Source: Methylomonas methanica
Lineage (GTDB): Bacteria > Pseudomonadota > Gammaproteobacteria > Methylococcales > Methylomonadaceae
DNA length: 64,000 bases
Direction: 5' to 3'
Assembly: GCA_001644045.1 (NCBI GenBank)
Contig: LUUF01000056.1
Location: 62,001-126,000 of the forward strand
Part shown: piece after piece, positions 25,698 to 53,117 of the stretch
Numbering within the stretch: position 1 is the stretch's first letter
How the letters are laid out: each line of letters opens with the position of its first letter
The notes under the pieces: generated by a model
What the model was told of the DNA's origin: nothing
Databases searched by the model: none
What the model saw: only the letters and a program-made list of their open reading frames with translations
Made by a program: the position numbers and the translations under genes

Positions 25698-25714
25698 GGC
25701 CGCTCATTGCGGCC
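25698..25714. terminator. GC-rich stem-loop between convergent HU and traN
   Basis: GGCCGC-TCATT-GCGGCC forms a perfect 6-base stem. It starts just after the HU stop and overlaps the traN stop. The position suits a bidirectional terminator, but no T-run follows. Confidence 0.45.
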
Positions 25715-30717: not shown

Positions 30718-31267
30718 AAGCCCGCCCAATCACTTGGTGGTCATACACATAACCCCAATACCGCGAGTCAAAACTCTTCGGCGTTTGACCTGTCATCCAG
30801 TAGGCTGCCGGCGGAATGGTTTCATTTCGTTTAAAACTGGCGGCAGGTTTTTTGAGCTTTTCCGCTAACGGCAAGCCTTCGATGATCAATAAACCGTTGA
30901 CCGTAGTTTGATGGCTGTCGACTTGAATCCGATCGCCAGTAACGCCAGCTGCAATCTTGACGATGATTTGCCCGTCCTTGAAATACGGGGTCATACGTTC
31001 GGCACGAAACGCCATCAGATCGCCCCGCCAGATGTCTTTGTTGTAGGTATCGATCAGGTAAATCCACTTGTCCGGCAAACAGCGATCCACTTGATCGTCA
31101 CCGCCAATCAGAAAGCGTTGACCGACGTAGCGTTCAACCGCCAATATCAATACCAGGATGGGTAGCGCCTTCAGTAAAAACATCCCGAATGTCGCTTTGG
31201 TTTGGTAAGGCCTTAATCGGGCGGGTTTTGATTGCGTAGAGGATGCGGATTGATGATGGACATTCAT
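30704..31267 (-). CDS. Conjugative signal peptidase, TrhF/TraF-like (S26 family)
   Basis: The 187-residue protein has one N-terminal membrane helix (residues 28-45) and S26 peptidase boxes: RGDLMAF, VKIAAGVTGD with the general-base Lys104, and FDSRYWGYV near the C-terminus. At the nucleophile box it reads VDRCLPD, so Cys63 stands where Ser is usual, giving a possible Cys-Lys dyad. Such enzymes process pilin or other precursors in conjugation systems. It lies 3 bases from trbI and overlaps the TrbC-TraW gene. Whether the Cys enzyme is active cannot be told from sequence. Confidence 0.85.
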   Translation of the reverse strand: MNVHHQSASSTQSKPARLRPYQTKATFGMFLLKALPILVLILAVERYVGQRFLIGGDDQVDRCLPDKWIYLIDTYNKDIWRGDLMAFRAERMTPYFKDGQIIVKIAAGVTGDRIQVDSHQTTVNGLLIIEGLPLAEKLKKPAASFKRNETIPPAAYWMTGQTPKSFDSRYWGYVYDHQVIGRAYALF

Positions 31268-31270
31268 AAC

Positions 31271-31588
31271 TCAACGTCCTTGCGTTTGAATGTATAAATC
31301 ACTGGGCGCAGCCACCACGGCAGTCGAATCGATCACCAGATAACCCGCATCACTAAGTTTTTTGGCTTGGCCTTGCCAGTCGTCAACTATCTTGGCCATT
31401 TGCTCTTGCGTAGCATTGGGCGGTATCGCTTGAATCAGCTTGGCGCGGTCGAGGACAAACACCGGTGTCACCAGATTGAGTCGGGCAATCGGCTGCTGCA
31501 GTTGCTGATGCGCGGCAAACCAACCGCCCACGGTGCCTAAACTGGCGGCGATCAACACCCCACTCAGCCATTGTGATTTAACGTCCAT
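31271..31588 (-). CDS. trbI: F-type TrbI-like inner-membrane protein
   Basis: The 105-residue protein has one membrane helix (LSGVLIAASLGTVGGWFAAH, residues 7-26) and a periplasmic domain with VTPVFVLDRAKLIQAI, typical of F-type TrbI, which influences pilus retraction. ATG 31588 is chosen because it overlaps the traC end by 11 bases and starts directly before the membrane helix; the upstream extension lies inside traC. Order traC-trbI-signal peptidase-traW-traU matches F-like operons. Confidence 0.8.
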   Translation of the reverse strand: MDVKSQWLSGVLIAASLGTVGGWFAAHQQLQQPIARLNLVTPVFVLDRAKLIQAIPPNATQEQMAKIVDDWQGQAKKLSDAGYLVIDSTAVVAAPSDLYIQTQGR

Positions 31589-33992
31589 GGCTGACCTCCC
31601 GTGATTTGGTTGTGCGGCTGTCGAGCAGCTGTTGAATGGCATCGCCCAGACTCAAGCCTTGCCGGCGCAATTGCTTGAGTGCCTGCACATCTTCCGGTTT
31701 GGTGGAAAACAGAATGCGTTTGAAGGGATCGACGATCAGACGACCAATGCCAGAGCCCATCTCGGTGATGAAGAAGATTTCCGAATAGGCACCGGGTAGT
31801 GTGTGGACGGTTTTTAAGAGTTCGTAGCCACCATCGGAGAGTGGCAAGCGCCTATCCTGTTTCATGCCTTCAATGACTTCGGCCTTCTGGCCCAATAGGT
31901 ACATATTGGCCGAGTTCTCGACAATGGCCCGGCCGGCGGCATTGCGGTACAAGTCGTTGACCGACTGGGTGATGGTGACGGCCGCACCGCCGTATTTACG
32001 AAACCGCCGGTAGCCGTGTTCCATAAACTTGGCCACATCGCCTTCAGTCAGCAAATCCCAAGCTTCGTCAATGATGACGATCTTCGGGCGGTTGCGTTCG
32101 CCTAGATACATCTCTTGCTGGATTTGGTAGATCAGCTGCAGCAAAACCACTTGTTGCAAGTGTTTGCGGCCCTTGAGTTCTTCGAGTTCCAGCACGGTAA
32201 AGTCGCTGGCGAATTTGGCGTTGTTCTGCCCATTGAAGTAACGGCCGTATTCACCTCTTGTAGTAAAGGGAAACAACTGCTCGCCGACATCTTTTAAGCG
32301 TTGATCGGTTTCGGCGCAGAGCTGCCAGGCAATGTCGTCAACAGACATTGCCTGCGATTTTTCAGTCCAGAGTTGTTTCAATATCCGTTTGAGGCCAGCG
32401 GTCTGAAAATCGCTGAGCTTCTCGGTCGGTGCTGCCATTTGGCTGACCAATCCCGCTAACATGTCGGCTTCTTCCTCAAAGTTTTGCACGATCTCGAAGG
32501 GGTTCATGCAAATCCCTGAGCCGTGGGTGAATTTCACGAAATCGCCTTCCAATACCTCGCAGAGGTTTTCATAGGAGCGGCCGACATCGATCGCCCAGAT
32601 TTGTGCGCCTTCGGTCAGGTAGCTGACGATGATCTCGTTGGTCAGGAAGGACTTGCCTTTGCCGGATTCGGCGGCGATACACAGGTTGTAATTGCCAGTG
32701 GTATCAAACAGCGATACGGCCATGTGTTCGCCGTTACGTGAAACAAAGTTCAAGGTCGGTGTGCCGGTGCCCGCCCAATCGCCGAACAGCGGCAATAACG
32801 GGATGGCATGCCGCGTGGCCAGGGTGCGGTAGCGTTTCAGGTCAGCAATCGCCGAGCGTTCGGGACCAAATGGCAAACAGTTCAGGAAAAACGGCAAGCA
32901 GAAATACTTGTCTTCTAAGAGCTGAAAACCCAGCTCCCGGAAATACACGCGGGCATTCGAGACGGCTGCGGACTCATCCTGTTCATCGCAAAACAGCAGT
33001 ACGCCAAAATAACTGCGAATCGGCCGGTCGCCGTCGCCATAGGCTTCGAATAGCACATCGAAGTTATGTTTGCGCTGCACCAGCACTGGCAAAAACCGGG
33101 CAATCGGGGTGTTGACCTGGTTGGTGATGAATTGCCGCACGCCCTCCTGGCGGGTACGCGTCGATTCGGCGTCCGGGTAATGCAAGGTCAGACTGAGCAA
33201 GGCATTTTGGCGAATGCCGCGGGTACCGGACAAAATGTCGCCCAGATAACTTTTGGCGCTGCCAAAGTAAAAATGATCCGGTGTGCGTTTGGCGGATAAG
33301 GTCTTCACGCGCTTATTGCCGAGCCAGACGCCTTTTTCATCGGTCTCGACGGCATTGTCGTAATCCAATAGCTGATCACGAATCAGTTGAGTCGGATCGG
33401 ATTCAGGTACTACTCGATCTCTCCAACCGGCATCGGGGTTCCAATTAAGGAGGGTATTCAACACCCTCACATACTGATCGGCATCTAAAATCGAGGGATA
33501 CAAACCAATCGTCGATAAAGACTGCTGAGTGGCGAGTTGCAATTCCGTGGCCCGACGGATTTCGGCTTCGTTAGGTCTGGGGTTGGCAATGGGTAATTTC
33601 ACCGTGACGATCACATGACTGCGTCGTAATCTGGCACCTGAAATCGCTTCTGGCGGTTTGGTCGTGCCTTGGCGCAAAAACTCAATGCTGGCAGCGGTCA
33701 TGGTTTTATAGGTGTTTTTTTGCTGTTTAATCCGCCGGGTTTGCATCACCGCCAGCGATTCCTCGATGTCTGGCGAGGTCCATAAGCTCACTTGCAGTAA
33801 GGTCTCGGTCGGCCAGTCCTGGTTCAGCAGCACGTTGACGCGGGCCGCGACGCTTTGATCGGCGCCAGTCAGAGGACGGCAGATAAAGCCAAAGCCGATG
33901 CTGGCATCGGCCAGTAAAAATAAATGATGGTCGTTGTCATAGGCTAAGGCTGAAAACAGGCTGTCCGCCGTATGCATTCGGGAGGCTGTCAT
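31578..33992 (-). CDS. traC: Conjugation ATPase TraC (VirB4-like)
   Basis: The 804-residue protein is the VirB4/TraC ATPase that powers pilus assembly at the inner membrane. Walker A is AAESGKGKSF near residue 443, Walker B is IVIIDEAWDLL near residue 640, and motifs TQSVNDLYR and the C-terminal DPFKRILFSTKPED follow. The N-terminal 400 residues are the TraC-type platform domain. Size is normal. The start overlaps the RRXRR gene by 4 bases and the end overlaps trbI by 11. Confidence 0.94.
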   Translation of the reverse strand: MTASRMHTADSLFSALAYDNDHHLFLLADASIGFGFICRPLTGADQSVAARVNVLLNQDWPTETLLQVSLWTSPDIEESLAVMQTRRIKQQKNTYKTMTAASIEFLRQGTTKPPEAISGARLRRSHVIVTVKLPIANPRPNEAEIRRATELQLATQQSLSTIGLYPSILDADQYVRVLNTLLNWNPDAGWRDRVVPESDPTQLIRDQLLDYDNAVETDEKGVWLGNKRVKTLSAKRTPDHFYFGSAKSYLGDILSGTRGIRQNALLSLTLHYPDAESTRTRQEGVRQFITNQVNTPIARFLPVLVQRKHNFDVLFEAYGDGDRPIRSYFGVLLFCDEQDESAAVSNARVYFRELGFQLLEDKYFCLPFFLNCLPFGPERSAIADLKRYRTLATRHAIPLLPLFGDWAGTGTPTLNFVSRNGEHMAVSLFDTTGNYNLCIAAESGKGKSFLTNEIIVSYLTEGAQIWAIDVGRSYENLCEVLEGDFVKFTHGSGICMNPFEIVQNFEEEADMLAGLVSQMAAPTEKLSDFQTAGLKRILKQLWTEKSQAMSVDDIAWQLCAETDQRLKDVGEQLFPFTTRGEYGRYFNGQNNAKFASDFTVLELEELKGRKHLQQVVLLQLIYQIQQEMYLGERNRPKIVIIDEAWDLLTEGDVAKFMEHGYRRFRKYGGAAVTITQSVNDLYRNAAGRAIVENSANMYLLGQKAEVIEGMKQDRRLPLSDGGYELLKTVHTLPGAYSEIFFITEMGSGIGRLIVDPFKRILFSTKPEDVQALKQLRRQGLSLGDAIQQLLDSRTTKSREVSHGR

Positions 33993-34252
33993 TGTGATAC
34001 CTCCTCGCTGTATAGCACATTCATGGCGGCTGCTTGATGCGCTTGCAACAACCGAATCGTGTAAGGATGACGGCTGACCCGAATCGCCCGTTTTTGGCGG
34101 AGCAATTCCCGTGCGCGTGCCGGGTGACAGGGATTGAGCAGCCGACCATCGGCATCCTGAACGCGAACCGTGCGATCGGTCGTGTGTTCTGGGTTACGGC
34201 GGTCACCCGCCGCCAGCTCGGAAGGGGTGTGTGGTCCGGTGTTTGTACTCAT
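33989..34252 (-). CDS. Stand-alone RRXRR (IscB PLMP-like) domain protein
   Basis: The 87-residue protein consists of a polar N-terminus and one RRXRR-type domain at residues 28-68: VRVQDADGRLLNPCHPARAR, ELLRQKRAIRVSRHPYTIRL. This matches the N-terminal PLMP/RRXRR segment of IscB and related HNH nucleases (D-x-DG-x-PLMPCHPARARxLL...RR-P-TI-L). No RuvC or HNH part follows. ATG 34252 lies 7 bases after traA, and the stop overlaps traC by 4 bases, so it is a true operon member. A nucleic-acid-binding role in transfer or regulation is possible; nothing more can be said. Confidence 0.78.
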   Translation of the reverse strand: MSTNTGPHTPSELAAGDRRNPEHTTDRTVRVQDADGRLLNPCHPARARELLRQKRAIRVSRHPYTIRLLQAHQAAAMNVLYSEEVSQ

Positions 34253-34259
34253 AACGCCT

Positions 34260-34559
34260 TTACAGGGTTGCTGTGACAATATTGGTGATGATGGTCGGCG
34301 CTGCGAACAAACCCACGCCACTGGCGACTCCCAGGACAAAGCCCATGATGCTGCCACGTACCACACCGGCCACCAGACCGACGATCACGAATACGATGGC
34401 AATGATCCGACCGAGTAAGCCTTCAACCCAGCCGGTCAGCAAGGTCCAGACGTTGTTGAACTCGGTACCGCCGGTACCAGCCATGGCGTCGGATGCCATC
34501 AATAGGAAAAAAAGCGATGCCAGGGCCACTAACACCTGGCTTCGAGTAGACGACTTCAT
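34260..34559 (-). CDS. traA: Conjugative pilin TraA-like
   Basis: The 99-residue protein has a signal peptide (VLVALASLFFLLMASDAMAG, cleavage near residue 26), a short polar stretch with TGWVEG, and two hydrophobic helices (IIAIVFVIVGLVAGVVRGS and MGFVLGVASGVGLFAAPTII), the TraA/VirB2 pilin layout. The subunit would be cleaved and assembled into the conjugative pilus. It lies between traV and traC. ATG 34559 is chosen at the signal peptide; the upstream extension is not hydrophobic. Confidence 0.85.
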   Translation of the reverse strand: MKSSTRSQVLVALASLFFLLMASDAMAGTGGTEFNNVWTLLTGWVEGLLGRIIAIVFVIVGLVAGVVRGSIMGFVLGVASGVGLFAAPTIITNIVTATL

Positions 34560-34687
34560 TGAAACGACCTCTTGTTTAAGTAAAGACGGTTGCCCGTCTG
34601 GTCTCGGAAGTAAATTCCGGCTCAACAAAATGCGGTCGCCCGCTAAGGCTCGTCATACCCGAAGGCACGGCGGTGAAAGTGTGTGGT

Positions 34688-35215
34688 TTAGTTTTTGGCG
34701 GCTGGGTTGTTCAGCGTGGACGGCATGGTTCGCTGCTCGCCATCATCCACATCCGCTAAGGGGCGCTTATCAGGCGCGCGTTGCTCCACCTGTAATGGAA
34801 TCAGTGAAGGACTTAAAGAAGGCTCCGACTTGCCAATCATCCAGCGCCGGGGTTCCAATTCGGTGTAGACGTAGTTCGACACCATCAAATCGCCTTCGGC
34901 ATCTTCCCAAGGTGCAATCCAGATCCGCATCACCTGCGATGGCGTACGAATCGGCGTCGGGTCATCGATCTTGGGCACCGGTTGCTGGACTGCTGGACTA
35001 AGGTCATTGGCAGGTGCAGTTTCGGCTGGATGATCGGGATTAACTGTGACATCCGCTAGTGCGCGGTTGGTTTCTTGATAGGCCTGGGTGGTCGACAAAC
35101 ACTGCGGTTCATCGGGCATGCCCTTACAGCCGTATTCGGTGGTGGCGCAGCCGGATAGTAAACTCCAGCCAATCAGGCTGAAGACATAAAATAAAAAATG
35201 GTAGATACGGCTCAT
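34688..35215 (-). CDS. traV: Conjugative transfer lipoprotein TraV
   Basis: The 175-residue lipoprotein has the lipobox LLSGC (Cys23) after a hydrophobic leader, then TEYGCKGMPDEPQCLSTTQAY with the two extra cysteines of TraV, a Pro-rich middle and the conserved RIWIAPWEDAEGDL. TraV anchors the TraB-TraK outer-membrane core complex. It overlaps dsbC by 4 bases and is followed by a 128-base gap before traA. Confidence 0.92.
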   Translation of the reverse strand: MSRIYHFLFYVFSLIGWSLLSGCATTEYGCKGMPDEPQCLSTTQAYQETNRALADVTVNPDHPAETAPANDLSPAVQQPVPKIDDPTPIRTPSQVMRIWIAPWEDAEGDLMVSNYVYTELEPRRWMIGKSEPSLSPSLIPLQVEQRAPDKRPLADVDDGEQRTMPSTLNNPAAKN

Positions 35216-36021
35216 GGCTTTTTCTCAGGTTTTGGGGTTACAGGCGCGGTCGTTTGTGCAACCTCATGCGGTTTATTGGCTAACCAATCTGCCAAGACTT
35301 CAGGTGCACCGCTGTGGGTACGGCCGTCCGGGGCAATCAGAAACGGTACGCCCTGCAAGCCAAACAGCTTGGCGGTGACCACGGCTTTTTGCAGCGGCTC
35401 TTTATTGCACTGACCAGGTGGTTCGGTTGGTAATCCGGCGTAATCCTGTTTCAACAGTCGGTCGCGGACGGCGTCTTTGAGTTTGGCGTCGTTGGCCCCC
35501 AACTGACAGGCCAATTGCACGACGATGTTTTGTGATTCGGGACCCAGGATCGGAACCATCACCAATTTGAAAGTGTATTGGTCCTGCAAAGCTTGCAGGT
35601 CTTTCATCACATTGCCGCAGTACGGGCAACGCGGGTCGATGAACACCAAAACCGAAGTCTTGCCGTGACCAATGGTGACCGGGCCTAAATCGTCGACATT
35701 GAGTTTCATGCGTGACAGATCGATACGATTGGCAATCTTGTCGATGTCCGGTAGTTCCTTGATTTCCTGTTTAGTCCAAATATCCATCAATTTGCCGCCA
35801 TACAACGCAAAACGCCCGTTACTGGAAATAAACACGGTTTGCTCGCCGGTCTTGACCATCTTCAGGCCTGAGATCGGTAAATCCTGCATGCCGTCTATTT
35901 TGATCGATAAAAGGCCAGCGGCAATCTCGGAAATCGCCGGTTTTTGTGGGTTGGCAGCAAAACTGGCTGAATTCACTAACAATGGTGCCAGCAGCAGTAA
36001 ATGGAATTTGCGTAGGGTCAT
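35212..36021 (-). CDS. dsbC: DsbC-type thiol:disulfide isomerase of the transfer operon
   Basis: The 269-residue exported protein has a signal peptide (LLLLAPLLVNSASFAA), a DsbC-like dimerisation segment, and a thioredoxin fold with the active site FIDPRCPYCGNVM near residue 133. The cis-Pro loop is LQGVPFLIAPDGR. It would isomerise disulfides in the periplasm, likely for cysteine-rich TraN, TraU and TraV of the same operon. SXT-type elements carry dsbC at this site. It lies 28 bases after traB and overlaps traV by 4. Confidence 0.92.
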   Translation of the reverse strand: MTLRKFHLLLLAPLLVNSASFAANPQKPAISEIAAGLLSIKIDGMQDLPISGLKMVKTGEQTVFISSNGRFALYGGKLMDIWTKQEIKELPDIDKIANRIDLSRMKLNVDDLGPVTIGHGKTSVLVFIDPRCPYCGNVMKDLQALQDQYTFKLVMVPILGPESQNIVVQLACQLGANDAKLKDAVRDRLLKQDYAGLPTEPPGQCNKEPLQKAVVTAKLFGLQGVPFLIAPDGRTHSGAPEVLADWLANKPHEVAQTTAPVTPKPEKKP

Positions 36022-36049
36022 AAATCGGTTCCTGGGGCGAGATAGAAAA

Positions 36050-37408
36050 TCAGCTTGGGGTTTTCAGCTTCAGTGCCGTGCCTTTTTGCACGATGAAATT
36101 GACCTGGCGTGTTGCATCGACTTCGATGACCGGGTAAATCTCTTCGGCCATATCCATGTAAAAATGCGACAGTCGTTCCATGGCATAACCGGCACCTTTC
36201 AATGCACCGCCTTCCATGGACTGTGAAGAAAAGGCACTTTGGAACGGCGTGCTGCCGGCCAGACTGCCCAAACCGCCGGTCATCAACACCGGAATTTGAT
36301 TGCGGCCAAAGGCATCGGAAAAGCCGCGTAAAAAGCCGGCCATCATCGATTGCGCCAATAACGCACCTTGTTTGGACACTACGCGACCGCGCACACCGTT
36401 TTTGCCGTCTTCGCCGGTGGCATAGGCATTCATCGGCACTTCAATCACGCCACCGTCCTGGCGGACACAGGAAAAGGTCTCGCCGCGAAAGTAAGCGCGC
36501 TCGGCGCTCAAGTCGCCAAAGCCTGCGGCCAACAGAAAGCACTCGCGCACATCGGCATGGAAGCGGTTGGGCAAGATGGCTTCTTTTTTGATGCGAAATA
36601 GCACCGGCATGGGTTCTTTTTTCGCTTTCTTACCGGTCGGTGCATCGAGACCGTTCAGTAGGACACCCGTCAAAATGCTCCCCGCTGGGATAAAGACTTC
36701 GCTATGTTTGGCGGTTTGGTCGCCTGCGGCTTTACCGTCGGTATTTGGTGTGGATGACTTCTCATCTTTAATGACCCGAATCTGTAAAGCGGTTGTCGGC
36801 TGTCCGTTGGCAGATCGGCCGCCCGAGACACCGGCACTGCCGTGGCTGGGTGCGGGTATGGCCGCTTGTTCAAAGGCGCTGTTCAGGTCGTTGCTATCCA
36901 ATGATGATCGCGATGGATTAAAGCGTCGATCGTTTGGATAATTAGGCGCAGACAAACCAGCGCTTGGTGATGGTGTCGTATCACCAGGGAGTTGAGTCGA
37001 TGCTGTCGGCTTGCTTTTAAGCGACTCGACTTCACCGGACACGGCCTTTAATTTCTGGTCATAGGCTTCCCGCTCGGCTTCGGTCCATTGTTTGAAGCGT
37101 TGTTCATCGGATTGCTGCTCACGTTTTTGCTGCTCTTCAATCGCAGCTAGCCGACGGCTTTGCTCTTCGTTTTTTTGCAGTAAATCCCGTAGCTGGGCCG
37201 AGATGCCATCAATCCCGAGTGAACGCGGATCACTATCGGTGAGGATGTGTTGAATGGTGGCTTGTTTACTGAGGGGTTTGGTGACTTCCGGGGTGATGGT
37301 GGCCAAACCAATGATGCTGGCCAGCAAGACGCCGCCAATTCCACCCACCGCCAAATTACGTTTGGCCGTGGGGCTTAAACGCGACCACCATGAATCGACA
37401 CCGGCCAT
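36050..37408 (-). CDS. traB: Conjugative transfer protein TraB
   Basis: The 452-residue protein has one N-terminal membrane helix (NLAVGGIGGVLLASIIGLAT, residues 19-38), a coiled coil (residues 75-135, EEQSRRLAAIEEQQKREQQS...), a Pro/Ser-rich linker and a C-terminal beta domain (EVFIPAGSILTGVLLNGLDA, ERAYFRGETFSCVRQDG). This is the VirB10-like TraB that spans the periplasm and joins the outer-membrane core to the inner membrane. It shares one base with the traK stop. Confidence 0.93.
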   Translation of the reverse strand: MAGVDSWWSRLSPTAKRNLAVGGIGGVLLASIIGLATITPEVTKPLSKQATIQHILTDSDPRSLGIDGISAQLRDLLQKNEEQSRRLAAIEEQQKREQQSDEQRFKQWTEAEREAYDQKLKAVSGEVESLKSKPTASTQLPGDTTPSPSAGLSAPNYPNDRRFNPSRSSLDSNDLNSAFEQAAIPAPSHGSAGVSGGRSANGQPTTALQIRVIKDEKSSTPNTDGKAAGDQTAKHSEVFIPAGSILTGVLLNGLDAPTGKKAKKEPMPVLFRIKKEAILPNRFHADVRECFLLAAGFGDLSAERAYFRGETFSCVRQDGGVIEVPMNAYATGEDGKNGVRGRVVSKQGALLAQSMMAGFLRGFSDAFGRNQIPVLMTGGLGSLAGSTPFQSAFSSQSMEGGALKGAGYAMERLSHFYMDMAEEIYPVIEVDATRQVNFIVQKGTALKLKTPS

Positions 37409-38361
37409 TAGCGTTGGTCTCCGGTGAGTAATGAGGGTCTGAGTGAGGTGGCGGTTTCAAGTGACCGTCGAACCGTGACATACAGTTCAGTGGACTCATT
37501 CTGTCCCAGAACGACTTTGGGCCAGGCGGCGACCGCCAATACATCGTCCTTAGTGGTTGCACATGAGCGCTCATCGAATTCCAGTGGATCGCTGCCGGTA
37601 TTGCGGGCCAGACCGACCAGAATCAGCATGTCTTGACCTTCCAGGACTTGGCCGGTCCGAATCTGCACGCGATCCTGCAGGCAATGGATATGTTCGGTTT
37701 TACTGGGCTCGCGCAGAGAAAAACCCACTGGGGTCTTTTGCAATCCCAGATCGCGGAACAACTTTTTTAGCTGAGTGATGTAGGCCTGTTCCTGATCGCT
37801 AGCCTTGCTGCCAGATGCGGCAGCCCGTTGTTGCAGTTTGGTCAGCACCTTGAAACTATCTTTATCCAGGCTCAGATGAATCTCCCGGGCCGGGATACGT
37901 TTGGGAATCAGTGTCAGCGACAAGGCAATGTCCTGGTTATCGCCTGGCGTAATGTACAAGGTCACCGGCGTCTCATCAGCGGTGGCGACATAAACGATTT
38001 TGCCTTTGGTGCTGGTCGTTGCCTGACTGGTGGTGGTGACCACCGGATTATCGAACGGCGTGACCAAGCGATTGAGATGGTCCACCGCAATCGGTATCAG
38101 TTCGTTGATGCCGGGTTTGACTTGAACGGTCTGTGGCGCCACCGACGAAGAGACCTGTTGATTGGCCACTTTTAAGACACTGGCGTCAACGGGGGGTAGT
38201 TCGATACCCAGCGATTGTGAATCGCTCGATGGCTCAGTCGATTCTGGTATGAGGTCGCCCACTGTAGTCACCGGCGGTAACACGGTGATCGGTAATTCCT
38301 CAGCGGACGTAGCGCTACTGATGATCAACAACAATACCCAATGGCGGCAGGTTTTATTCAT
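37408..38361 (-). CDS. traK: Conjugative transfer protein TraK
   Basis: The 317-residue exported protein (signal peptide to about residue 19) has the VirB9-like TraK beta domain: KGKIVYVATADETPVTLYIT, LSLTLIPKRIPAREIHLSLD, and a C-terminal domain with LVGLARNTGSDPLEFDERSC. TraK forms the outer-membrane core with TraV and TraB. It overlaps traE by 4 bases. A Pro-rich stretch at residues 20-80 precedes the conserved part. Confidence 0.88.
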   Translation of the reverse strand: MNKTCRHWVLLLIISSATSAEELPITVLPPVTTVGDLIPESTEPSSDSQSLGIELPPVDASVLKVANQQVSSSVAPQTVQVKPGINELIPIAVDHLNRLVTPFDNPVVTTTSQATTSTKGKIVYVATADETPVTLYITPGDNQDIALSLTLIPKRIPAREIHLSLDKDSFKVLTKLQQRAAASGSKASDQEQAYITQLKKLFRDLGLQKTPVGFSLREPSKTEHIHCLQDRVQIRTGQVLEGQDMLILVGLARNTGSDPLEFDERSCATTKDDVLAVAAWPKVVLGQNESTELYVTVRRSLETATSLRPSLLTGDQR

Positions 38362-46572: not shown

Positions 46573-47235
46573 TCAGGCAATCCACAACAGATAAAAGCCG
46601 AGCGCCAGCAGCCCTCCGCCGGCCACCCGATCCACCCAGACCTTCCATCCAGCGCCATCCAGCCGCTGGACAAGGCTGCCGGCCGTGGTGCCGACCAGCA
46701 GCACGGGCGTGCCGGCGCCCAGGCCGTAGAGGAAAAGCAACAGCGCCCCATAAAACATCTGCCCCTGATAGGCTGCGTAAGAGAGCACCGAGGCCAGAAC
46801 CGGCGTACCGCACGGCCCGATCACCAGCGAGAGAAGAAAACCCGTGCCGAACGCGCTGCCGGCACGCAACGGGGCACGCATCAGCCGCTCCAGCGGCAAG
46901 TGCAACCAGCCCAGTAGGTACAGCCCCATCAGCAGCGGCACCAGCGCCACCAGGTGGCGCCCCACGCTACCCAGCCCCGTGATGCGCCCCGCCAGCGAGA
47001 CGGCAATGCCCAGCACTGCCATGGCGACCGCGATGCCAAGCACGAAGGCGACGGCGTTAGTGGTGCTGCGCCGCGAGCCGCAGTTCCTTCCCACGCAACA
47101 GGTCGCCGCTGCGGCCGGGTAGAGCGCCAGGCAGCACGGATTGAGTCCTGCGATCACGCCGGCCACGAGCGATAGCGGCAGGGTAATCAGGCTCCCGCTG
47201 GCCAGTGCGCTGCCGATCTGCGAGACAACGTCCAT
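46573..47235 (-). CDS. CcdA/DsbD-type transmembrane thiol-redox protein
   Basis: The 220-residue membrane protein has six predicted helices and the CcdA/DsbD beta-domain fold: GLNPCCLALYPA with Cys34-Cys35, extra cysteines 46, 47 and 52, and GPCGTPVLASVLSYAAYQG near residue 140. CcdA proteins pass electrons from cytoplasmic thioredoxin to periplasmic thiol proteins; related short forms occur in mercury and arsenic clusters. It is the last gene of the operon that starts with the CadC-like repressor and follows the thioredoxin-fold gene directly, its likely partner. The GC content is well above the czc operon. Confidence 0.83.
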   Translation of the reverse strand: MDVVSQIGSALASGSLITLPLSLVAGVIAGLNPCCLALYPAAAATCCVGRNCGSRRSTTNAVAFVLGIAVAMAVLGIAVSLAGRITGLGSVGRHLVALVPLLMGLYLLGWLHLPLERLMRAPLRAGSAFGTGFLLSLVIGPCGTPVLASVLSYAAYQGQMFYGALLLFLYGLGAGTPVLLVGTTAGSLVQRLDGAGWKVWVDRVAGGGLLALGFYLLWIA

Positions 47236-47631
47236 CTAATCCCCGCTCAGCGTTGCCAGGCGGGCCTCGATCGCTTGCACGGTTTTTTCCTCCTCGCCCT
47301 CGTAGCGCGCGGCTTCGCGGCCGTCCTTGTCGAGGATGACCACGGTCGGGGCGCTCACCACGCGATACCGCGCCAACAGCTCAGAAGCGCTGTTGGGCAT
47401 GAGTTCCTCCACCTTGACGCCGCGCTTCCCGGCAGCACGCACGGTACGGATGATTTCGCCGCAGCGGTCTTCGGCCTCCTCCGCTTCGTTGAGATCGGCA
47501 ATCAAAAGCACCGATGGCGTGCCGGCGTCAACTGCCAGAGGGGCCGTGCCGAGCGCCTGCTGCTTATAGACAACGATGGTGACTGCGGCGAGCAGCACGC
47601 AGACCAGTCCGATCCATCTAGCTTTTTTCAT
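47236..47631 (-). CDS. Membrane-anchored thioredoxin-fold protein lacking CxxC
   Basis: The 131-residue protein has an N-terminal membrane helix (WIGLVCVLLAAVTIVVYK) and a thioredoxin-like domain (PSVLLIADLN, RYRVVSAPTVVILDKDGREA with the cis-Pro loop). At the active-site position only DRCGEI, a single Cys, is found, so it is not a standard disulfide reductase. ATG 47631 is chosen at the membrane anchor; the long upstream extension lies in the MtrA-like gene. It sits between that gene and the CcdA-like gene with 0-14 base gaps or overlaps, which suggests a shared redox job. Confidence 0.78.
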   Translation of the reverse strand: MKKARWIGLVCVLLAAVTIVVYKQQALGTAPLAVDAGTPSVLLIADLNEAEEAEDRCGEIIRTVRAAGKRGVKVEELMPNSASELLARYRVVSAPTVVILDKDGREAARYEGEEEKTVQAIEARLATLSGD

Positions 47632-48808
47632 TGCATACCTCTTGCGGCCCGCAGCCGCATGAACGTTTGATAGGCGGCACCGTGGTGGGCGCCAGAGTGA
47701 TTTCGCCTGCCGCCCGATCCTGCACGTAAGGCAGGTCGGTGCGCAGGCTCTCTTCGGCGCGGGCCAGCTCCCGTCCGAGATAGGCCGCATGGTCCAGACG
47801 GCTGATGAGTCCCGCCTCAATCGCCGTCGCGTACAATGCCGCAGGCGTTTGGGCTTCGAAGACCCGATCCAGCACCCCCTGGTTGGTATAGTGTTCCAGA
47901 ATCAGACGATTGTGAGCCTGATCGGGATAGACCACGAAATAGCCTTGCGGGTCAAGTATCAGGCGCTGAGGTTCGTGAGCCGACTCTATCGGTATCGTCG
48001 CCGTGTCGGGTATGGGGCCGCCGAAGGGGCCTGGGTTTCGGTGGGCGGCCTGCAATGCCAAATCGAGTATCGCTTCTTTATTGGATTCGCCGATCACGTC
48101 AATCAGTTCCACCTGGCGGCGGAAGGCGTCGATATGCTCGACGGACAAGTTCTTCAGCAAAGGGCGCTTACCCTGGGCGCCGACGATGCGCATTTTCTCG
48201 TTGACACCGTGTTGCATCAGGCTGACCAGCGACTGACCGGGCAAATGACCGATGGCTTGACGGGTATCCTCACCGCAGACAATGAGGAAGCGAATGTGCG
48301 GATTCGATAGAACGTTACGAATCAAATGCTCGATGCCCAAGTTCTCGGTGTGCAGGCTACCCACGATGGACAGCTCGGCCGCCTTGGTGCCCGCCAGTTC
48401 CTCGACGAGCGGATCGGAGTTCAGGGCGCATACGGCGACGGGCGCCTGGAAGCGCAGCACGCGGTAGTTGCCCGGAAGCGGCGGCCAACCAATGCGTTCC
48501 TCGGACTCTTCCGTCGGGCACAGATCGAGACTCGCGCCGGCTTCCGGGTAGGCTTCCGCAAAAGCATTCGCGGCAATCGCCGGATAGCACACCGGGCAGC
48601 CTAGGCAATCGTATTTTTTCGGCAGAAACACCGTACGGGCCTGGGCGAGAATCGGAGCCAGCTTGCTCCTTCCTGCTTCGGTTTCCGCGAAGGCCTCCAC
48701 AGTCTGCTGAAAGCAGCCGCATTTGTGGCATTTGGGCGCCGCAATCGCCTCTTCGATTTGCTCGGTGATGACGCGCAAGGCGGACGCATCCTGTTCAACA
48801 GTGGTCAT
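47618..48808 (-). CDS. MtrA-like / DUF4346 protein with Cys-rich N-terminus
   Basis: In this 396-residue protein residues 115-245 match the cytoplasmic domain of archaeal MtrA (tetrahydromethanopterin S-methyltransferase subunit A): VGSLHTENLGIEHLIRNVLS, NPHIRFLIVCGE, GHLPGQSLVSL, RIVGAQGKRPLLKN. His188 in GHLPGQ aligns with the MtrA histidine that is the lower ligand of cobalt in the corrinoid. Residues 280-350 fit DUF4346. The N-terminus has CHKCGC (27-32) and CLGCPVC (68-74), which could hold an iron-sulfur cluster or metal, and the C-terminus has SCGCGPQEVC. ATG 48808 follows GGAGG. A corrinoid or methyl-transfer role in metal(loid) response is inferred. Confidence 0.8.
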   Translation of the reverse strand: MTTVEQDASALRVITEQIEEAIAAPKCHKCGCFQQTVEAFAETEAGRSKLAPILAQARTVFLPKKYDCLGCPVCYPAIAANAFAEAYPEAGASLDLCPTEESEERIGWPPLPGNYRVLRFQAPVAVCALNSDPLVEELAGTKAAELSIVGSLHTENLGIEHLIRNVLSNPHIRFLIVCGEDTRQAIGHLPGQSLVSLMQHGVNEKMRIVGAQGKRPLLKNLSVEHIDAFRRQVELIDVIGESNKEAILDLALQAAHRNPGPFGGPIPDTATIPIESAHEPQRLILDPQGYFVVYPDQAHNRLILEHYTNQGVLDRVFEAQTPAALYATAIEAGLISRLDHAAYLGRELARAEESLRTDLPYVQDRAAGEITLAPTTVPPIKRSCGCGPQEVCNEKS

Positions 48809-49358
48809 GCGGTCCTCCTTCCCACTCGCCCGGCGCCGGCTGACGATGAATCTTAAATTCGCAATAGGCGTGCCCAAGCCCCAGGCAGGCGGTTTCTTCC
48901 ACGCTCAAGGCCTTTTCGTCGGTCACACCGCGCAGGAAGCCCTCAAAAAGCCCGGCATCAAAGCCGCAGACGGTTCTTTCCACGTTGGGAATCGGCCAGC
49001 CTAGAACCGCCGAGCAGCCGGAGATTTGAAGCAGCGCCCCTTCCGCGTTACGGTGAAGAATACGCGACTCGATCACCCCCTCCAGGCCACAGGCCAAAAT
49101 CAGCGCGGAAAGAGCCACATCCAGACAAACAGGTTTTTCGTTTTGCTCCACGGCAATACGCGCGCCGATGACGCGTCCCATTTCCCGCAAGGGCGCAGCA
49201 AAATCGCTGTCCAGACCAATAAGTTTCACCGCGAGCCGGTCCAACGCGGCGAAATCGCTTGCCGCGATTCCGCCCAGCCACGACGCGTTAGTGCAAGACG
49301 AAACAGAGCTGAGTTCGGAATCGATGCGCTCTATCGAAGGTATTGCTGCCTTGGTCAT
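48795..49358 (-). CDS. V4R-domain protein
   Basis: The 187-residue protein ends in a V4R (4-vinyl reductase) type domain: the segment around residues 85-170 includes GLEGVIESRILHRN, LQISGCSAVLGWPI and the closing ETACLGLGHAYCEFKIH (Cys158, Cys166), the usual C-x-GxG-x2-CEF metal or ligand-binding end. V4R domains bind small hydrophobic or metal ligands. ATG 49358 is chosen; a GTG one codon earlier is possible. It overlaps the MtrA-like start by 14 bases, so the two are coupled. Confidence 0.75.
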   Translation of the reverse strand: MTKAAIPSIERIDSELSSVSSCTNASWLGGIAASDFAALDRLAVKLIGLDSDFAAPLREMGRVIGARIAVEQNEKPVCLDVALSALILACGLEGVIESRILHRNAEGALLQISGCSAVLGWPIPNVERTVCGFDAGLFEGFLRGVTDEKALSVEETACLGLGHAYCEFKIHRQPAPGEWEGGPHDHC

Positions 49359-49440
49359 CACATCACCCGGAAAGGATAGACAAAAACGCCATTGTTCGTT
49401 ACTATCGAAATCATCGAAATGACTGCGCCAAAAAGAAGGT

Positions 49441-49827
49441 TCATCCCGCTTTCGCCTCTAACAAGGTCAGATCGCCCTTGATGGCCTTCACGAGATATTC
49501 ACTGTGAAGTCGGTAATAAACCATCCTGCCGTCGTTGCGCATGCGCAGCCAACCTTGGTCGCGCAGCAGTTTCAGCTGATGAGAGGTGGCCGCTAGACTG
49601 AGACCCAGTACATGGGCTATGTCGCAGACACACAGTTCTCTCTGGTCAAGCGCCAGCAGGATTCTCAGCCGGGTGGTATTGCCAAGCAGCTTGTAGAATT
49701 CCGCCAGCTCATGGAGGCGGCTTTCCTCCTTAGCCAGACTCGCCTGGACCGCAGCCACTTTGTCGTGTTCAAAGCAAGGGATATTGCAGATGTCTGCTTG
49801 TCTGGGTACAGTGATAACCGTTTTCAT
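49441..49827 (-). CDS. cadC: CadC-like ArsR-family metal-responsive repressor
   Basis: The 128-residue winged-helix repressor has the four metal-sensing cysteines of CadC in matching spacing: Cys14 and Cys18 (ICNIPCF) in the N-terminal arm and Cys66 and Cys68 (ELCVCD) in the sensing helix. The DNA-recognition helix is LSLAATSHQLKLLRDQG. CadC binds Cd, Pb or Zn and releases its operator. It is divergent from the CadA-like ATPase across 80 bases and heads the V4R/MtrA-like operon on its own strand, so it may control both. An alternative ATG lies at 49842. Confidence 0.87.
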   Translation of the reverse strand: MKTVITVPRQADICNIPCFEHDKVAAVQASLAKEESRLHELAEFYKLLGNTTRLRILLALDQRELCVCDIAHVLGLSLAATSHQLKLLRDQGWLRMRNDGRMVYYRLHSEYLVKAIKGDLTLLEAKAG

Positions 49828-49838
49828 AGGGTTATTTC

Positions 49839-49862
49839 TCATTTCGATGATTGCGAAAATGA
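49839..49862. promoter_or_regulatory. Inverted repeat between cadC and cadA (putative operator)
   Basis: TCATTTCG (49839-49846) and CGAAAATGA (49854-49862) form an imperfect inverted repeat in the divergent promoter region, the expected place for an ArsR-family operator serving both genes. Confidence 0.4.
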
Positions 49863-49907: not shown

Positions 49908-52229
49908 ATGAACATAAACAATCAATCGGAAAAACCTTGCTGTTGTGCAGAGGAGAAATCGGACAGCAGCCAGACGGCCGCATCAGTGCCTGCAAGCGCC
50001 ATAACTTTCAAGATCGAAGGTCTGGACTGCGCCGAAGAAGTTGCCACATTAAAGAGCGCGATAGGCCCGCTAGTGGGTGGCAGTGACAAGTTGGCCTTTG
50101 ATGTATTGAACGGGCGCATGACGCTGTTGTCTGATGCCGAGCCTGTGACTGAAAAAACCATCATTAAGGCCGTTGCGGCAACCGGCATGAAGGCGACCCG
50201 CTGGCAAGCCGGTCAGACCGATGCCAATGTCAAGCAACTGCACCGTTCAAAGACCGTGTATACCACACTCAGCGGTTTGCTTATCGTGATCGGCATGTTG
50301 ATTCATATCACAATCGCCGGTGGCTTTAGTGATGCGCAAACTTTTCTCAGCCATCCTGAGAATTGGTCTCTAAATTGGGAGGTTATCACTGACTATCTCA
50401 CTAGCTTATTGAACGCACATACTCAGCAGGCCATGCCTTTGCCTGAAAAAATCGCCTTTGGCCTGGCGGTGATTTTCGGCGGTCGGCATGTGGTTGTTAA
50501 AGCTTTTTATGCGCTAAAACGATTGCGTGCCGATATGAATTTATTGATGACGGTGGCCGTTATCGGCGCCATGTTCATTAATGAATGGTTTGAAGCGGCC
50601 ACCGTGAGTTTTCTGTTTGCCCTGTCCCTGGCGATTGAAAGCTGGAGTATTGGCCGTGCCCGTCACGCGGTAGAAGCGTTGTTGGATTTAGCGCCATCGA
50701 CGGTGACGGTCAAGGATGAATCCGGAAAAGAACGCGTGGTATCTGCCGGCGACGTCAGTATAGGCACCCGTTTCATTTTAGCGCCTGGCGATAAAATCCC
50801 CTTGGATGGCGAGGTGATTACCGGCTTCAGTTCAGTCAACCAAGCGCCAATTACCGGTGAAAGCATGCCGGTTGCCAAGCAAGTGGGCGATGAAGTGTTT
50901 GCCGGCAGTATCAATGGTGAAGGGACACTGGAAATCCGATCAAGCAAACTTGTCACGGATACCACCCTGGCACAGATCACGCGTCTGGTTGGAGAAGCGC
51001 ATGGCAAACGGGCGGAAGCCGAACAATGGGTGGATAAGTTTGCCCGCATTTATACTCCAGTAGTAATGATCTTAGCCCTGGCCGTCTGTGTCGTTCCGCC
51101 GCTGTTCTTAGGAGGCATTTGGAACGAGTGGATCTATCGTGCCTTAGTATTATTGGTGATTGCCTGCCCCTGTGCCTTGGTCATTTCAACACCGGTCAGT
51201 ATTGTCGCGGCATTGGCTAGTGCAGCCCGTCAAGGCATTCTGATCAAAGGCGGCATTTATATCGAAACACCGGCCCATCTGAATGCGATTGCTTTTGATA
51301 AAACCGGTACGCTGACTTGTGGCGAGCCGATCGTCACCGGTGTTTACCCATTTAATAGTCATACCGAAGAAGAACTTTTAAGCCGTGCTGCCGCACTGGA
51401 AGCACGAAGCAATCATCCGTTGGCCAAAGCCATTTTACGCTATACGGAACAACGTGGTATCAACGTAGCCAGCGCTGACAACGTGACGGTTTTGCCTGGT
51501 AAGGGGGTAACCGGACTATTTAATGGCACTAATTACTGGCTGGGATCGCGTCGCTATTTATTGGAACGTAGCCGGGAAATTCCGGAAATTAGTCAAAAAG
51601 CGATTACCCTTGAACAAACAGGGCAAACCGTGATTGCCATTGGTAATGATCGGCATATTTGCGGCCTCATTGCCGTTGCCGATCAACCTCGCGCCGACAT
51701 CAGATCGATTTTGCAAGCGCTGAGACAGACAGGCATCAAACATTTAGCCATGTTAACCGGCGATAATCGGGTGACGGCCAATAACATCGCGTCCCAAATT
51801 GGCATCGATGAGGTACACGCCGAATTGTTGCCCGCCGATAAAGTGGAGATCGTCAGTCAAATGGTCGAAAAATACGGACAGGTGGCGATGGTCGGCGATG
51901 GTGTCAACGATGCGCCGGCGCTGGGCCGGGCCAACCTGGGGATTGCCATGGGGGTATTAGGGTCGGATGCGGCCATCGAAATAGCCGATATTGCGCTGAT
52001 GGGTGATGATCTTTCCAAACTGCCTTGGCTGATTGGGCATTCCAAAAGAACCTTGGCGATTATTCGACAGAATATTGCTTTTGCGCTGACGATCAAGGCC
52101 GCTTTTGCAATCTTAGCTTTTGCCGGTGTGGCGACCTTATGGGAAGCCATAGCAGCTGATATGGGCGCTTCCCTATTGGTTGTAGCCAACGGATTGAGAT
52201 TACTTCATCCCAAAAATACGGTCTTTTAA
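49908..52229 (+). CDS. cadA: Cd/Zn/Pb-exporting P1B-type ATPase (CadA/ZntA)
   Basis: The 773-residue protein has a Cys-rich start (PCCCAEE, residues 10-16), a heavy-metal domain with GLDCAEE (about 39-45), eight membrane helices, the actuator motif ITGES near 314, the transmembrane metal site CPCAL near 419, the phosphorylation site DKTGTLT near 464, SNHPLAKA and the hinge GDGVNDAPALG. CPC with GLDCAEE-type HMA marks the Zn/Cd/Pb group. It exports cations from the cytoplasm with ATP and is divergent from the matching CadC-like repressor. Confidence 0.95.
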   Translation: MNINNQSEKPCCCAEEKSDSSQTAASVPASAITFKIEGLDCAEEVATLKSAIGPLVGGSDKLAFDVLNGRMTLLSDAEPVTEKTIIKAVAATGMKATRWQAGQTDANVKQLHRSKTVYTTLSGLLIVIGMLIHITIAGGFSDAQTFLSHPENWSLNWEVITDYLTSLLNAHTQQAMPLPEKIAFGLAVIFGGRHVVVKAFYALKRLRADMNLLMTVAVIGAMFINEWFEAATVSFLFALSLAIESWSIGRARHAVEALLDLAPSTVTVKDESGKERVVSAGDVSIGTRFILAPGDKIPLDGEVITGFSSVNQAPITGESMPVAKQVGDEVFAGSINGEGTLEIRSSKLVTDTTLAQITRLVGEAHGKRAEAEQWVDKFARIYTPVVMILALAVCVVPPLFLGGIWNEWIYRALVLLVIACPCALVISTPVSIVAALASAARQGILIKGGIYIETPAHLNAIAFDKTGTLTCGEPIVTGVYPFNSHTEEELLSRAAALEARSNHPLAKAILRYTEQRGINVASADNVTVLPGKGVTGLFNGTNYWLGSRRYLLERSREIPEISQKAITLEQTGQTVIAIGNDRHICGLIAVADQPRADIRSILQALRQTGIKHLAMLTGDNRVTANNIASQIGIDEVHAELLPADKVEIVSQMVEKYGQVAMVGDGVNDAPALGRANLGIAMGVLGSDAAIEIADIALMGDDLSKLPWLIGHSKRTLAIIRQNIAFALTIKAAFAILAFAGVATLWEAIAADMGASLLVVANGLRLLHPKNTVF

Positions 52230-52703: not shown

Positions 52704-53117
52704 TTATCGCAGTGGCGCTTCCGGTGTGAGGTCCAACAACTGAGAGGAAGCGACCAAAGCAGCTTTGAGAAAGAGTTTCTCGGGGATAGTCTCGAATGTA
52801 GTTCCCTCTACCTCTACCGTTCGACACTCTGATTCGCCACAAACAGAACAGCAACGACTGCTCCCGACTCTCGCACCGAGCCATTCCTCCATGGGTCTGC
52901 CCGCGATCCAAATGCGGTTGGACTCTGAGGGGTTGGCCTTGAATGATTTTTCGTTTATCTCTCTGATCTCAAGAGTTGGCTCAATGCCCAAGGGGAGGAG
53001 CGCTTCCTTGAGTTTACTGATGGCGCTCTGCATTTCCTGATACGTGGCATGGCAGCGATCACACGTCTTCCCGCCTGAGCTCACAAGCCTCTGCCAAATT
53101 ATCGGTAGCGATTTCAT
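52704..53117 (-). CDS. DUF2703-family protein
   Basis: The 137-residue protein matches DUF2703: IIWQRLVSSGGKTCDRCHAT at the start, a thioredoxin-like middle (IEPTLEIREINEKSF, WIAGRPMEEWLG), and the cysteine cluster RCCSVCGESECRTVEVEGTTFETIP. DUF2703 genes occur in arsenic and mercury neighbourhoods; the function is not established. Conserved cysteines suggest metal or thiol chemistry. It is on the minus strand, alone, within the metal island. Confidence 0.8.
   Translation of the reverse strand: MKSLPIIWQRLVSSGGKTCDRCHATYQEMQSAISKLKEALLPLGIEPTLEIREINEKSFKANPSESNRIWIAGRPMEEWLGARVGSSRCCSVCGESECRTVEVEGTTFETIPEKLFLKAALVASSQLLDLTPEAPLR

What the first reader, a model, noticed from the sequence alone, without database searches (positions are those of the whole stretch)
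46573..49827. CadC-controlled operon with an MtrA-like corrinoid-type protein: a candidate undescribed metal(loid) system
A four-cysteine metal sensor heads a coupled set: V4R protein, MtrA-like/DUF4346 protein with three Cys clusters and the corrinoid-ligand His (GHLPGQ) kept, a single-Cys thioredoxin-fold protein and a CcdA-like membrane protein. MtrA belongs to methanogen methyl transfer; in a metal-induced bacterial operon it could carry a corrinoid for methylation or demethylation of a metal or metalloid, with electrons supplied through CcdA. The nearby DUF2703 gene fits the same theme.
Basis: partly seen in the sequence, partly recalled or inferred. Interest (0 to 1): 0.78.

Follow-up and report, generated by a model that had tools for sequence, protein, structure and literature searches.

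The report
Metal-controlled corrinoid-protein operon in bacteria
A mobile group of bacterial genes, with a heavy-metal sensor gene in front, carries a vitamin-B12-type protein best known from methane-making microbes; it recurs beside mercury, cadmium and zinc resistance genes in many bacteria, which suggests a dedicated B12-based way of handling toxic metals that has yet to be tested.

Summary
At 46573-49827 (minus strand) lie a CadC-like ArsR repressor, a V4R protein, an MtrA/DUF4346 protein, a membrane-anchored thioredoxin-fold protein and a CcdA-like protein. The block is a portable cassette: three Methylomonas plasmids have czcA directly followed by zntA at this place. The MtrA domain keeps the cobalamin residues and its model lies 1.5 A from MtrA-cobalamin. 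Seven N-terminal cysteines are invariant in 51 sequences, down to a Planococcus plasmid copy. In 66 bacterial loci, up to 52 have an ArsR gene upstream on the same strand, of at least three classes; one further locus has a CadR/PbrR-like MerR instead. An inverted repeat TTTCG-N7-CGAAA sits before arsR and again behind it, in the window and in most of 16 related loci. MerC, MerT or MerA genes share the operon in several loci, and MerA co-occurs in 6 of 7 against 67 of 362 gammaproteobacterial genomes. So: a metal-regulated corrinoid system, described in no paper that my searches of an open-access library listed. The chemistry (methylation, demethylation or other) is inferred. CcdA feeding electrons to MtrA is topologically unlikely, and DUF2703 goes with the zntA module, not the cassette.

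The parts
49441..49827 (-). arsR: CadC-like ArsR/SmtB repressor, 128 aa, four Cys (CxxxC near the N-terminus and ELCVCD)
   Evidence: Pfam HTH_5 E 1.3e-12; NCBIfam HTH_metalloreg over cut-off; PDB: Lmo1102 6e-22, CadC 1u2w 7.4e-15
49840..49860 (-). operator-like inverted repeat ATTTTCG-N7-CGAAATG just upstream of arsR, in the arsR/zntA divergent gap
   Evidence: 0 mismatches to TTTCG-N7-CGAAA; read on the minus strand; the longer 20-nt motif occurs twice only in 64 kb
49401..49421 (-). second operator-like repeat between arsR and v4r, in front of the v4r-mtrA-trx-ccdA unit
   Evidence: 1 mismatch; 18-nt, 94% match to the first site; a repeat just behind arsR in 13 of 16 related loci
48795..49358 (-). 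v4r: V4R-domain protein, 187 aa
   Evidence: PF02830 E 3.3e-12; resembles the C-terminal V4R part of MsvR, 1.8e-7, far below cut-off
47618..48808 (-). mtrA-like gene, 396 aa: N-terminal seven-Cys domain, MtrA corrinoid domain, PterinBD-DUF4346 domain, Cys-containing C-terminal tail
48488..48808 (-). N-terminal seven-Cys domain (residues 1-107; Cys27, 30, 32, 68, 71, 74, 97)
   Evidence: all seven invariant in 51 sequences including a Planococcus plasmid copy 21% identical; model pLDDT 83, no convincing PDB match
48023..48493 (-). MtrA corrinoid-binding domain (residues 106-262), Glu155, Asn156 and His188 kept
48245..48247 (-). codon of His188, counterpart of the cobalt ligand His84 of MtrA
   Evidence: aligned; conserved in 186 of 187 bacterial rows, the other a gap; role of His84 from a passage of PMC4915002
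47717..47956 (-). PterinBD-DUF4346 domain (residues 285-364)
   Evidence: PF14251 E 8.5e-21
47633..47659 (-). Cys-containing C-terminal tail (Cys384, 386, 392), predicted disordered
   Evidence: Cys384 in 169, Cys386 in 163 and Cys392 in 101 of 187 rows; pLDDT under 50 at 368-396
47236..47631 (-). trx: membrane-anchored thioredoxin-fold protein with one conserved Cys; start codon overlaps the mtrA stop
   Evidence: Cys57 in 25 of 25 rows; a relative hits Thioredoxin at 1.3e-7
46573..47235 (-). ccdA-like DsbD_TM membrane protein with vicinal Cys pairs 34/35 and 46/47
   Evidence: PF02683 E 2.4e-20; pairs conserved in 23-24 of 25 rows
49908..52229 (+). zntA-type P1B ATPase, divergent; part of the recipient czc-zntA module, possibly under the same upstream operator
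   Evidence: TIGR01525 602.6 bits; contiguous with czcA in three Methylomonas plasmids

Best explanation
A portable, metal-inducible operon built round a cobalamin-binding MtrA-type protein. SHOWN BY SEQUENCE: a CadC-like repressor gene with an operator-like repeat before it and another before the v4r-mtrA-trx-ccdA unit; an MtrA domain with an intact set of cobalamin residues; an invariant seven-Cys N-terminal domain; repeated pairing with unrelated metal sensors and metal carriers. INFERRED: a soft metal ion (Cd, Pb, Hg or similar) lifts the repressor. The MtrA protein then works as a dedicated corrinoid methyl carrier whose methyl group goes onto the soft metal or metalloid. The Cys-rich N-terminal domain serves as a redox or metal centre that re-reduces cobalt or holds the metal, the flexible Cys tail captures metal, and the DUF4346 domain docks a methyl-pterin donor. 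Small membrane proteins (CcdA-like with Cys pairs, MerC, SMR pair, ABC or P1B pumps, by locus) move metal or product across the membrane. Thus chemistry that in methanogens is a side reaction would here be a regulated detoxification step. The metal-regulated corrinoid-protein part is likely (about 0.8); methyl transfer onto the metal is the less certain half.
Against: No cobalamin binding, induction or metal speciation has been measured. No methyl-pterin methyltransferase was noticed in the mtrA operons, but the neighbours were sorted by clusters and by eye, not by a full domain scan. MerA co-occurrence rests on 7 positive genomes; the arsenite-permease control leans the same way (5 of 7 against 128 of 362, p 0.061), and among 49 other-sample genomes (48 reached through mtrA loci and the window's own) only 14 have MerA over the cut-off. 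The MetH marker for B12 use is not clearly more common in mtrA-positive genomes than in others. The seven-Cys domain matched no solved fold convincingly and the best profile hit, PsaC, is at E 0.1, so an iron-sulfur cluster is unproven. The core repeat is absent beside arsR in the other 10 of 26 class-I loci, and the window has three further one-mismatch core hits elsewhere. Methylating Hg would not obviously help a cell.
Confidence: 0.45

Rival explanations
1. Same operon, opposite direction: the corrinoid takes a methyl group off an organometal (such as methylmercury or methyl-lead) and passes it to a pterin through DUF4346, leaving an inorganic ion for MerA, P1B or RND pumps.
For: Co-occurrence with MerA, which acts after demethylation; MerC, MerT or MerA genes in the same operon in some loci; DUF4346-like segment at the end of a dihydropteroate-synthase-like protein of the host genome; the host is Methylomonas-like, and some methanotrophs degrade methylmercury without merB (passages of PMC12997803 and PMC8262016).
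Against: CadC-type sensors are known for inorganic ions (recalled); methyl transfer from methylcobalamin to Hg(II) is the favoured direction (recalled); PMC12997803 attributes methanotroph demethylation to methanobactin uptake and, it is thought, methanol dehydrogenase.
Confidence: 0.2
2. A metal trap or delivery protein: the Cys clusters bind the metal and hand it to membrane pumps; the corrinoid site is vestigial or only senses redox state.
For: Seven N-terminal and two or three C-terminal Cys; the Planococcus copy has several added CGC motifs and lies next to a P1B ATPase and an HMA protein; the thioredoxin with one conserved Cys and the Cys-pair CcdA-like protein suit thiol or metal relay.
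Against: His188, Glu155 and Asn156 are kept in 186, 186 and 187 of 187 bacterial rows, which a vestigial site would not be.
Confidence: 0.17
3. Back-up of one-carbon metabolism: the protein carries methyl groups to methionine synthesis when soft metals poison thiol or zinc methyltransferases.
For: PMC7857596 predicts that MtrA feeds a core methionine synthase in methanogens (passages); DUF4346 links to pterin enzymes.
Against: No methionine synthase noticed in 66 mtrA neighbourhoods, though they were not fully domain-scanned; does not explain MerC, MerT, SMR, CcdA or P1B partners.
Confidence: 0.08
4. Plain hitchhiking in metal islands: mtrA has an unrelated function and sits there by chance of transfer.
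For: Such islands accumulate mixed cargo; RND genes, CDF genes and Tn3-type transposases are near several copies.
Against: Same-strand metal sensor in up to 52 of 66 loci, within 60 bp or overlapping in 34; several sensor classes; and a repeat in front of the unit in most of 16 related loci.
Confidence: 0.05

Closest known systems
MtrA, corrinoid subunit of methyl-H4MPT:coenzyme M methyltransferase (PF04208)
   Different: Extra seven-Cys N-terminal domain, DUF4346 and Cys tail; no C-terminal membrane segment apparent; the Ile of the MtrA GAIP segment aligns with Arg in 187 of 187 bacterial rows, Ile in 13 of 13 archaeal ones; under a metal sensor and in bacteria
NCBIfam NF002128 (PRK00964.1-6), long 'MtrA' of 390 positions
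   Same: Matches almost end to end: 520 bits, residues 30-410 of the 419-aa reading
   Different: Below the curated cut-off of 568 bits; the family name implies methanogenesis, which does not fit the hosts
HgcA/HgcB mercury methylation (features recalled)
   Same: Corrinoid protein plus Cys or Fe-S centre acting on a soft metal; a Cys-bearing tail
   Different: HgcA has another corrinoid domain with a Cys ligand and is known from anaerobes (recalled); here the fold is MtrA-type, the ligand His, and a metal-sensor gene precedes it
CadC of cadmium-resistance operons
   Same: ArsR fold; both Cys motifs align with Lmo1102 (6e-22) and CadC 1u2w matches residues 10-113 (7.4e-15)
   Different: Precedes a corrinoid-protein operon, with a second operator-like repeat behind its own gene
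mer operon (MerR, MerT, MerP, MerC, MerA)
   Same: Mer genes share the operon or neighbourhood of mtrA in several loci
   Different: The central protein is a corrinoid protein; no mer gene in the window cassette itself; merB was not searched for

Membership tests
MtrA family (PF04208) | Sequence match over the gathering score | tested here: met
   128.7 bits, cut-off 25
MtrA family (PF04208) | Cobalamin-binding Rossmann-type fold with His ligand, Glu and Asn kept | tested here: met
MtrA family (PF04208) | Actual cobalamin binding | not testable with these tools
   needs protein
Methanogen Mtr complex (energy-conserving) | C-terminal membrane helix and MtrB-H partners | tested here: not met
   C-terminus is DUF4346 plus a tail with no helix or strand after residue 357; the operon holds arsR, v4r, trx and ccdA; one PF04208 match in the genome. 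Genes for MtrB-H elsewhere in the genome were not searched
CadC-type ArsR sensors | Two N-terminal Cys plus the ELCVCD pair | tested here: met
   aligned to Lmo1102; that these are the CadC metal ligands is recalled
CadC-type ArsR sensors | Binds an operator and responds to Cd or Pb | not testable with these tools
   a conserved inverted repeat at two sites is suggestive; binding and response need protein
mer operon | merR with merT/merP and merA in the cassette | tested here: not met
   none in the five-gene cassette; the merA of this genome is on contig C31
HgcAB | CFeSP-type corrinoid domain with the Cys-ligand motif and a membrane domain (recalled) | tested here: inconclusive
   the protein is assigned to the MtrA fold with a His ligand; HgcA itself was not compared
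CcdA/DsbD transmembrane family | DsbD_TM match and one Cys each in the first and fourth helices (recalled) | tested here: met
   PF02683 2.4e-20; Cys34/35 and Cys142 conserved in 24 of 25 rows; helices not mapped here

The most novel reading that the evidence does not exclude
Bacteria, aerobes included, carry a mobile, metal-inducible resistance system that uses a dedicated MtrA-type corrinoid protein to methylate (or demethylate) soft metals or metalloids: methanogen-type methyl-transfer machinery turned from energy metabolism into metal detoxification, and an unrecognised biological source or sink of methylated metals outside hgcAB, merB and arsM.
Probability: 0.35. Interest if true: 0.9.

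Novelty: new variant of a known kind. Interest (0 to 1): 0.72.

Why it matters
If the protein carries a working corrinoid, this would be a metal-resistance operon whose central enzyme is a B12 methyl carrier, found on plasmids and near transposases and, by the titles of the records (many of them metagenome bins), in several phyla. Methylated metals are usually traced by hgcAB, merB and arsM (recalled); a further route would change such budgets. It also makes an old remark testable: metal(loid) methylation in methanogens is described as a side reaction of methanogenic cofactors (passage of PMC3182067), and this family may be the case in which that reaction was put under metal control. One source now names many of the bacterial relatives as a methanogenesis subunit, which misleads annotation; 2652 proteins scored E 0.001 or better in that search (best 120 listed; archaeal MtrA may be among the rest).

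Tried and rejected

DUF2703 as part of the system: rejected. It lies downstream of zntA in Methylomonas sp. DH-1 without the cassette, and the DUF2703 query found no ORF in loci L002-L080 at E 1e-3.

B12 use as a discriminating marker: uninformative. PF02965 is in the window's own genome (4.5e-133), in 31 of 48 genomes reached through mtrA loci and in 5 of 6 further sampled mtrA genomes (3 of these 6 appear to be the same genomes as three of the 48), against 17 of 25 sampled genomes without mtrA, which I picked from the front of the list.

Arsenic as the sole theme: the ACR3 control leans the same way as MerA but more weakly; one ArsM-like protein was seen in a mixed methyltransferase cluster.

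Operator in all class-I loci: the repeat was not found beside arsR in the other 10 of 26 class-I loci; in those 10 arsR lies within 20 bp of mtrA or overlaps it.

Literature: searches returned nothing. Searches (25 of 18,019 listed; 15 of 34; 15 of 670; 3 of 3) listed no title or abstract start about such an operon; two searches were on related themes. One listed paper (PMC13189705) holds the name tetrahydromethanopterin S-methyltransferase once beside metal terms; I did not open it. Only open-licence PubMed Central papers are held, so this is not proof that it is unpublished.

Gene calling: a first greedy caller took antisense ORFs (cluster c10); it was replaced by an amino-acid-composition caller. 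In one search the window's thioredoxin query was read from a wrong coordinate and contained stops; it was corrected, and no thioredoxin count is used. In one search the ArsR hits of L013, L029 and L034 are distant, weak or fragmentary (116 bits at 1538 bp, 97 bits at 882 bp, 39 bits), so 52 is an upper count; the stricter chain gives 45 of 66. Rows left out of the alignment: 12 of 66 loci in the script, and L043, L050, L052 and L065 by hand; 21 of the 120 listed homologues were used. For the N-terminal alignment L014 was left out because the trimming mark fell early. In one search eleven genomes with weak matches only (under 40 bits) were not counted as mtrA-positive; the 250-bit line was set after seeing the scores (lowest counted 279, next 38). 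In one search, 49 of the 66 loci were given as handles, and one (L048) was not held. The 187 rows include the window, an identical entry (P0001) and near-duplicates, so they are not independent.
Full report
What is there. On the minus strand from 49827 down to 46573 lie five tightly packed genes: a CadC-like ArsR repressor, a V4R-domain protein, an MtrA/DUF4346 protein, a membrane-anchored thioredoxin-fold protein and a CcdA-like membrane protein. The v4r and mtrA frames overlap by 14 bases, mtrA and trx likewise, and trx abuts ccdA. The arsR gene faces a zntA-type P1B ATPase (49908-52229); a czc-type efflux set ends at 46462 on the other side. The best DNA matches of the region among plasmids are Methylomonas plasmids, so the host is a Methylomonas-like methanotroph (inference).

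A portable cassette. In plasmids of Methylomonas sp. DH-1, Methylomonas sp. LL1 and M. koyamae the czcA gene is followed directly by zntA. Alignment of the window with the DH-1 plasmid runs up to 46448 and resumes at 49919, where the plasmid has 67 bases. The whole block with its repressor is therefore present or absent as a unit. GC is 0.59-0.68 for v4r to ccdA and 0.54 for arsR, against 0.51-0.53 for czcB, czcA and zntA. Elsewhere mtrA genes lie on 12-17 kb Planococcus plasmids and near Tn3-type transposase genes in L022, L024 and L027 (the L027 gene confirmed by Pfam, the others by similarity to it). Few plasmid records hold the family: 6 of 72,556 match, two of them only over the DUF4346 part.

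Metal control. Of 79 fetched loci, 66 are bacterial and 13 archaeal. In the 66, up to 52 have an ArsR-type gene upstream on the same strand within 2.5 kb, 34 of them overlapping or within 60 bp (a stricter chain gives 45). The sensors fall in at least three classes by their Cys motifs (sorted by eye): CadC-like with CxxPCF or CxxTCF and ELCVCD; a class with C-terminal DPCV and GLCL; and an ELCVCEL class. Planococcus has yet another ArsR, and Paraburkholderia a divergent MerR-type gene nearest to CadR-PbrR (148.5 bits, just under the cut-off of 151.45). Both Cys motifs of the window repressor align with Lmo1102, and CadC itself matches at 7.4e-15. An inverted repeat ATTTTCG-N7-CGAAATG lies just before arsR and a one-mismatch form again between arsR and v4r. 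The longer 20-base motif occurs twice in the window and nowhere else in it (0 of 100 shuffles reach 2); the short core with up to one mismatch has six hits in the window, three of them away from arsR. In the 16 related proteobacterial class-I loci the core with at most one mismatch is found upstream of arsR in 14 and downstream in 13; 28 hits fall in about 7.7 kb of these flanks and 6 in the remaining ~150 kb. These loci are related, so the counts are not independent. The other 10 class-I loci lack it. A second operator in front of mtrA's unit is what one expects if the metal controls mtrA and not only the repressor.

Partners. Three layouts recur: (A) arsR, then V4R or MerC or an SMR pair, then mtrA, trx and ccdA, as in the window (trx in 23 and ccdA in 22 of 66 loci by the chain rule, V4R in 4, MerC in 9, SMR in 5); (B) arsR, mtrA, a small secreted-looking protein with a CxxxxC pair (12 of 66), in some loci followed by a MacB-type ABC transporter or a small CCG membrane protein; (C) arsR, HMA protein, P1B ATPase and mtrA on a Planococcus plasmid. 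Several loci are cut by contig ends, so these are lower counts. One MerC of layout A was tested (PF03203 8e-11), the rest are its cluster mates. In L037 a MerA over its cut-off lies two genes upstream; in L051 a MerT match (Pfam over, NCBIfam under the cut-off) lies two genes downstream; in L024 a merR over its cut-off lies just upstream of arsR, with merT, merC and merA beyond it. The conserved thioredoxin Cys57 (25 of 25) and the Cys pairs of the CcdA-like protein suit handling of thiols or soft metal at the membrane. Electrons from CcdA to MtrA are unlikely, because that family moves electrons out of the cytoplasm (recalled) and MtrA shows no export signal.

Co-occurrence. Of 369 gammaproteobacterial genomes, 18 match the family profile, but only 7 hold mtrA genes by score (279 to 548 bits; the next best is 38), 5 of these with the N-terminal domain. 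MerA over its cut-off is in 73 of 369: 6 of the 7 against 67 of 362, one-sided Fisher p 3.0e-4; for the five with the N-terminal domain 4 of 5, p 0.006. The arsenite permease control gives 5 of 7 against 128 of 362, p 0.061; MerC 5 of 7 against 66 of 362, p 0.0036, but some of these MerC genes belong to the mtrA operon itself. In a second set of 49 genomes (48 reached through mtrA loci, and the window's own), MerA is over its cut-off in 14. The numbers favour mercury but are small, and the genomes are not independent.

How it probably works, and what is not known. The steps from metal sensing to expression are well supported by sequence, though not measured. The steps after that are inference: corrinoid loading, methyl transfer onto (or off) a soft metal, and a redox or metal role for the seven-Cys domain. 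I favour methylation because the sensors are of a type known for inorganic ions (recalled) and methylcobalamin gives its methyl readily to Hg(II) and related ions (recalled); in one study of human faecal communities arsenic methylation was seen only with added methylcobalamin (passages of PMC2920899). Methylation in Methanosarcina was described as a side reaction (passage of PMC3182067). The MerA partnership fits demethylation at least as well, so that stays the main rival.

Compared with what is known. By sequence and predicted fold the protein is a member of the MtrA family; the operon is not an energy-conserving Mtr complex. It may work like HgcA/HgcB, but its corrinoid domain is of the MtrA kind with a His ligand, and HgcA itself was not compared. 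The searches of an open-access library (long lists were capped) showed no paper that describes such an operon; DUF4346 occurs in none of its papers. I rate it a new variant of a known kind (metal-resistance operon, corrinoid methyl carrier) until the chemistry is measured.

Noticed in passing
window 25704-38361: F-type conjugation genes on the minus strand (TraN, TraU, TrbC, TraC, TraV, TrbI, TraK), so the metal island sits beside or on a conjugative element.
   Followed up: partly
window 52704-53117: The DUF2703 gene goes with the zntA module: also downstream of zntA in the DH-1 plasmid; no match in loci L002-L080.
   Followed up: yes
L085:5254-7191, L033, L048, L051, L053, L037, L002: P1B ATPases near mtrA have unusual motifs in the metal-site helix: CSC, APC, YPC or CPD; the window's own zntA reads CPC.
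   Followed up: no
L113:5748-7151 (G000 contig C31): The window's genome has a merA over the family cut-off with a MerC match about 0.4 kb away on another contig.
   Followed up: partly
L111:7818-8702 and L112:8006-8869: A shorter MtrA/DUF4346 subfamily without the seven-Cys domain, in another setting, with MENFGFFL near the start of both.
   Followed up: no
L106:286-1680 (G000 contig C1): Dihydropteroate-synthase-like protein of the methanotroph ending in a DUF4346-like segment.
   Followed up: partly
L016, L019, L020, L027, L107: A pair of SMR transporter genes lies between arsR and mtrA, where other loci have MerC; export of a lipophilic organometal cation is one possible reason.
   Followed up: no
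L048, L051, L053: In three loci from Nitrospirae or Nitrospirales records a DJ-1/PfpI-family gene follows mtrA directly.
   Followed up: no
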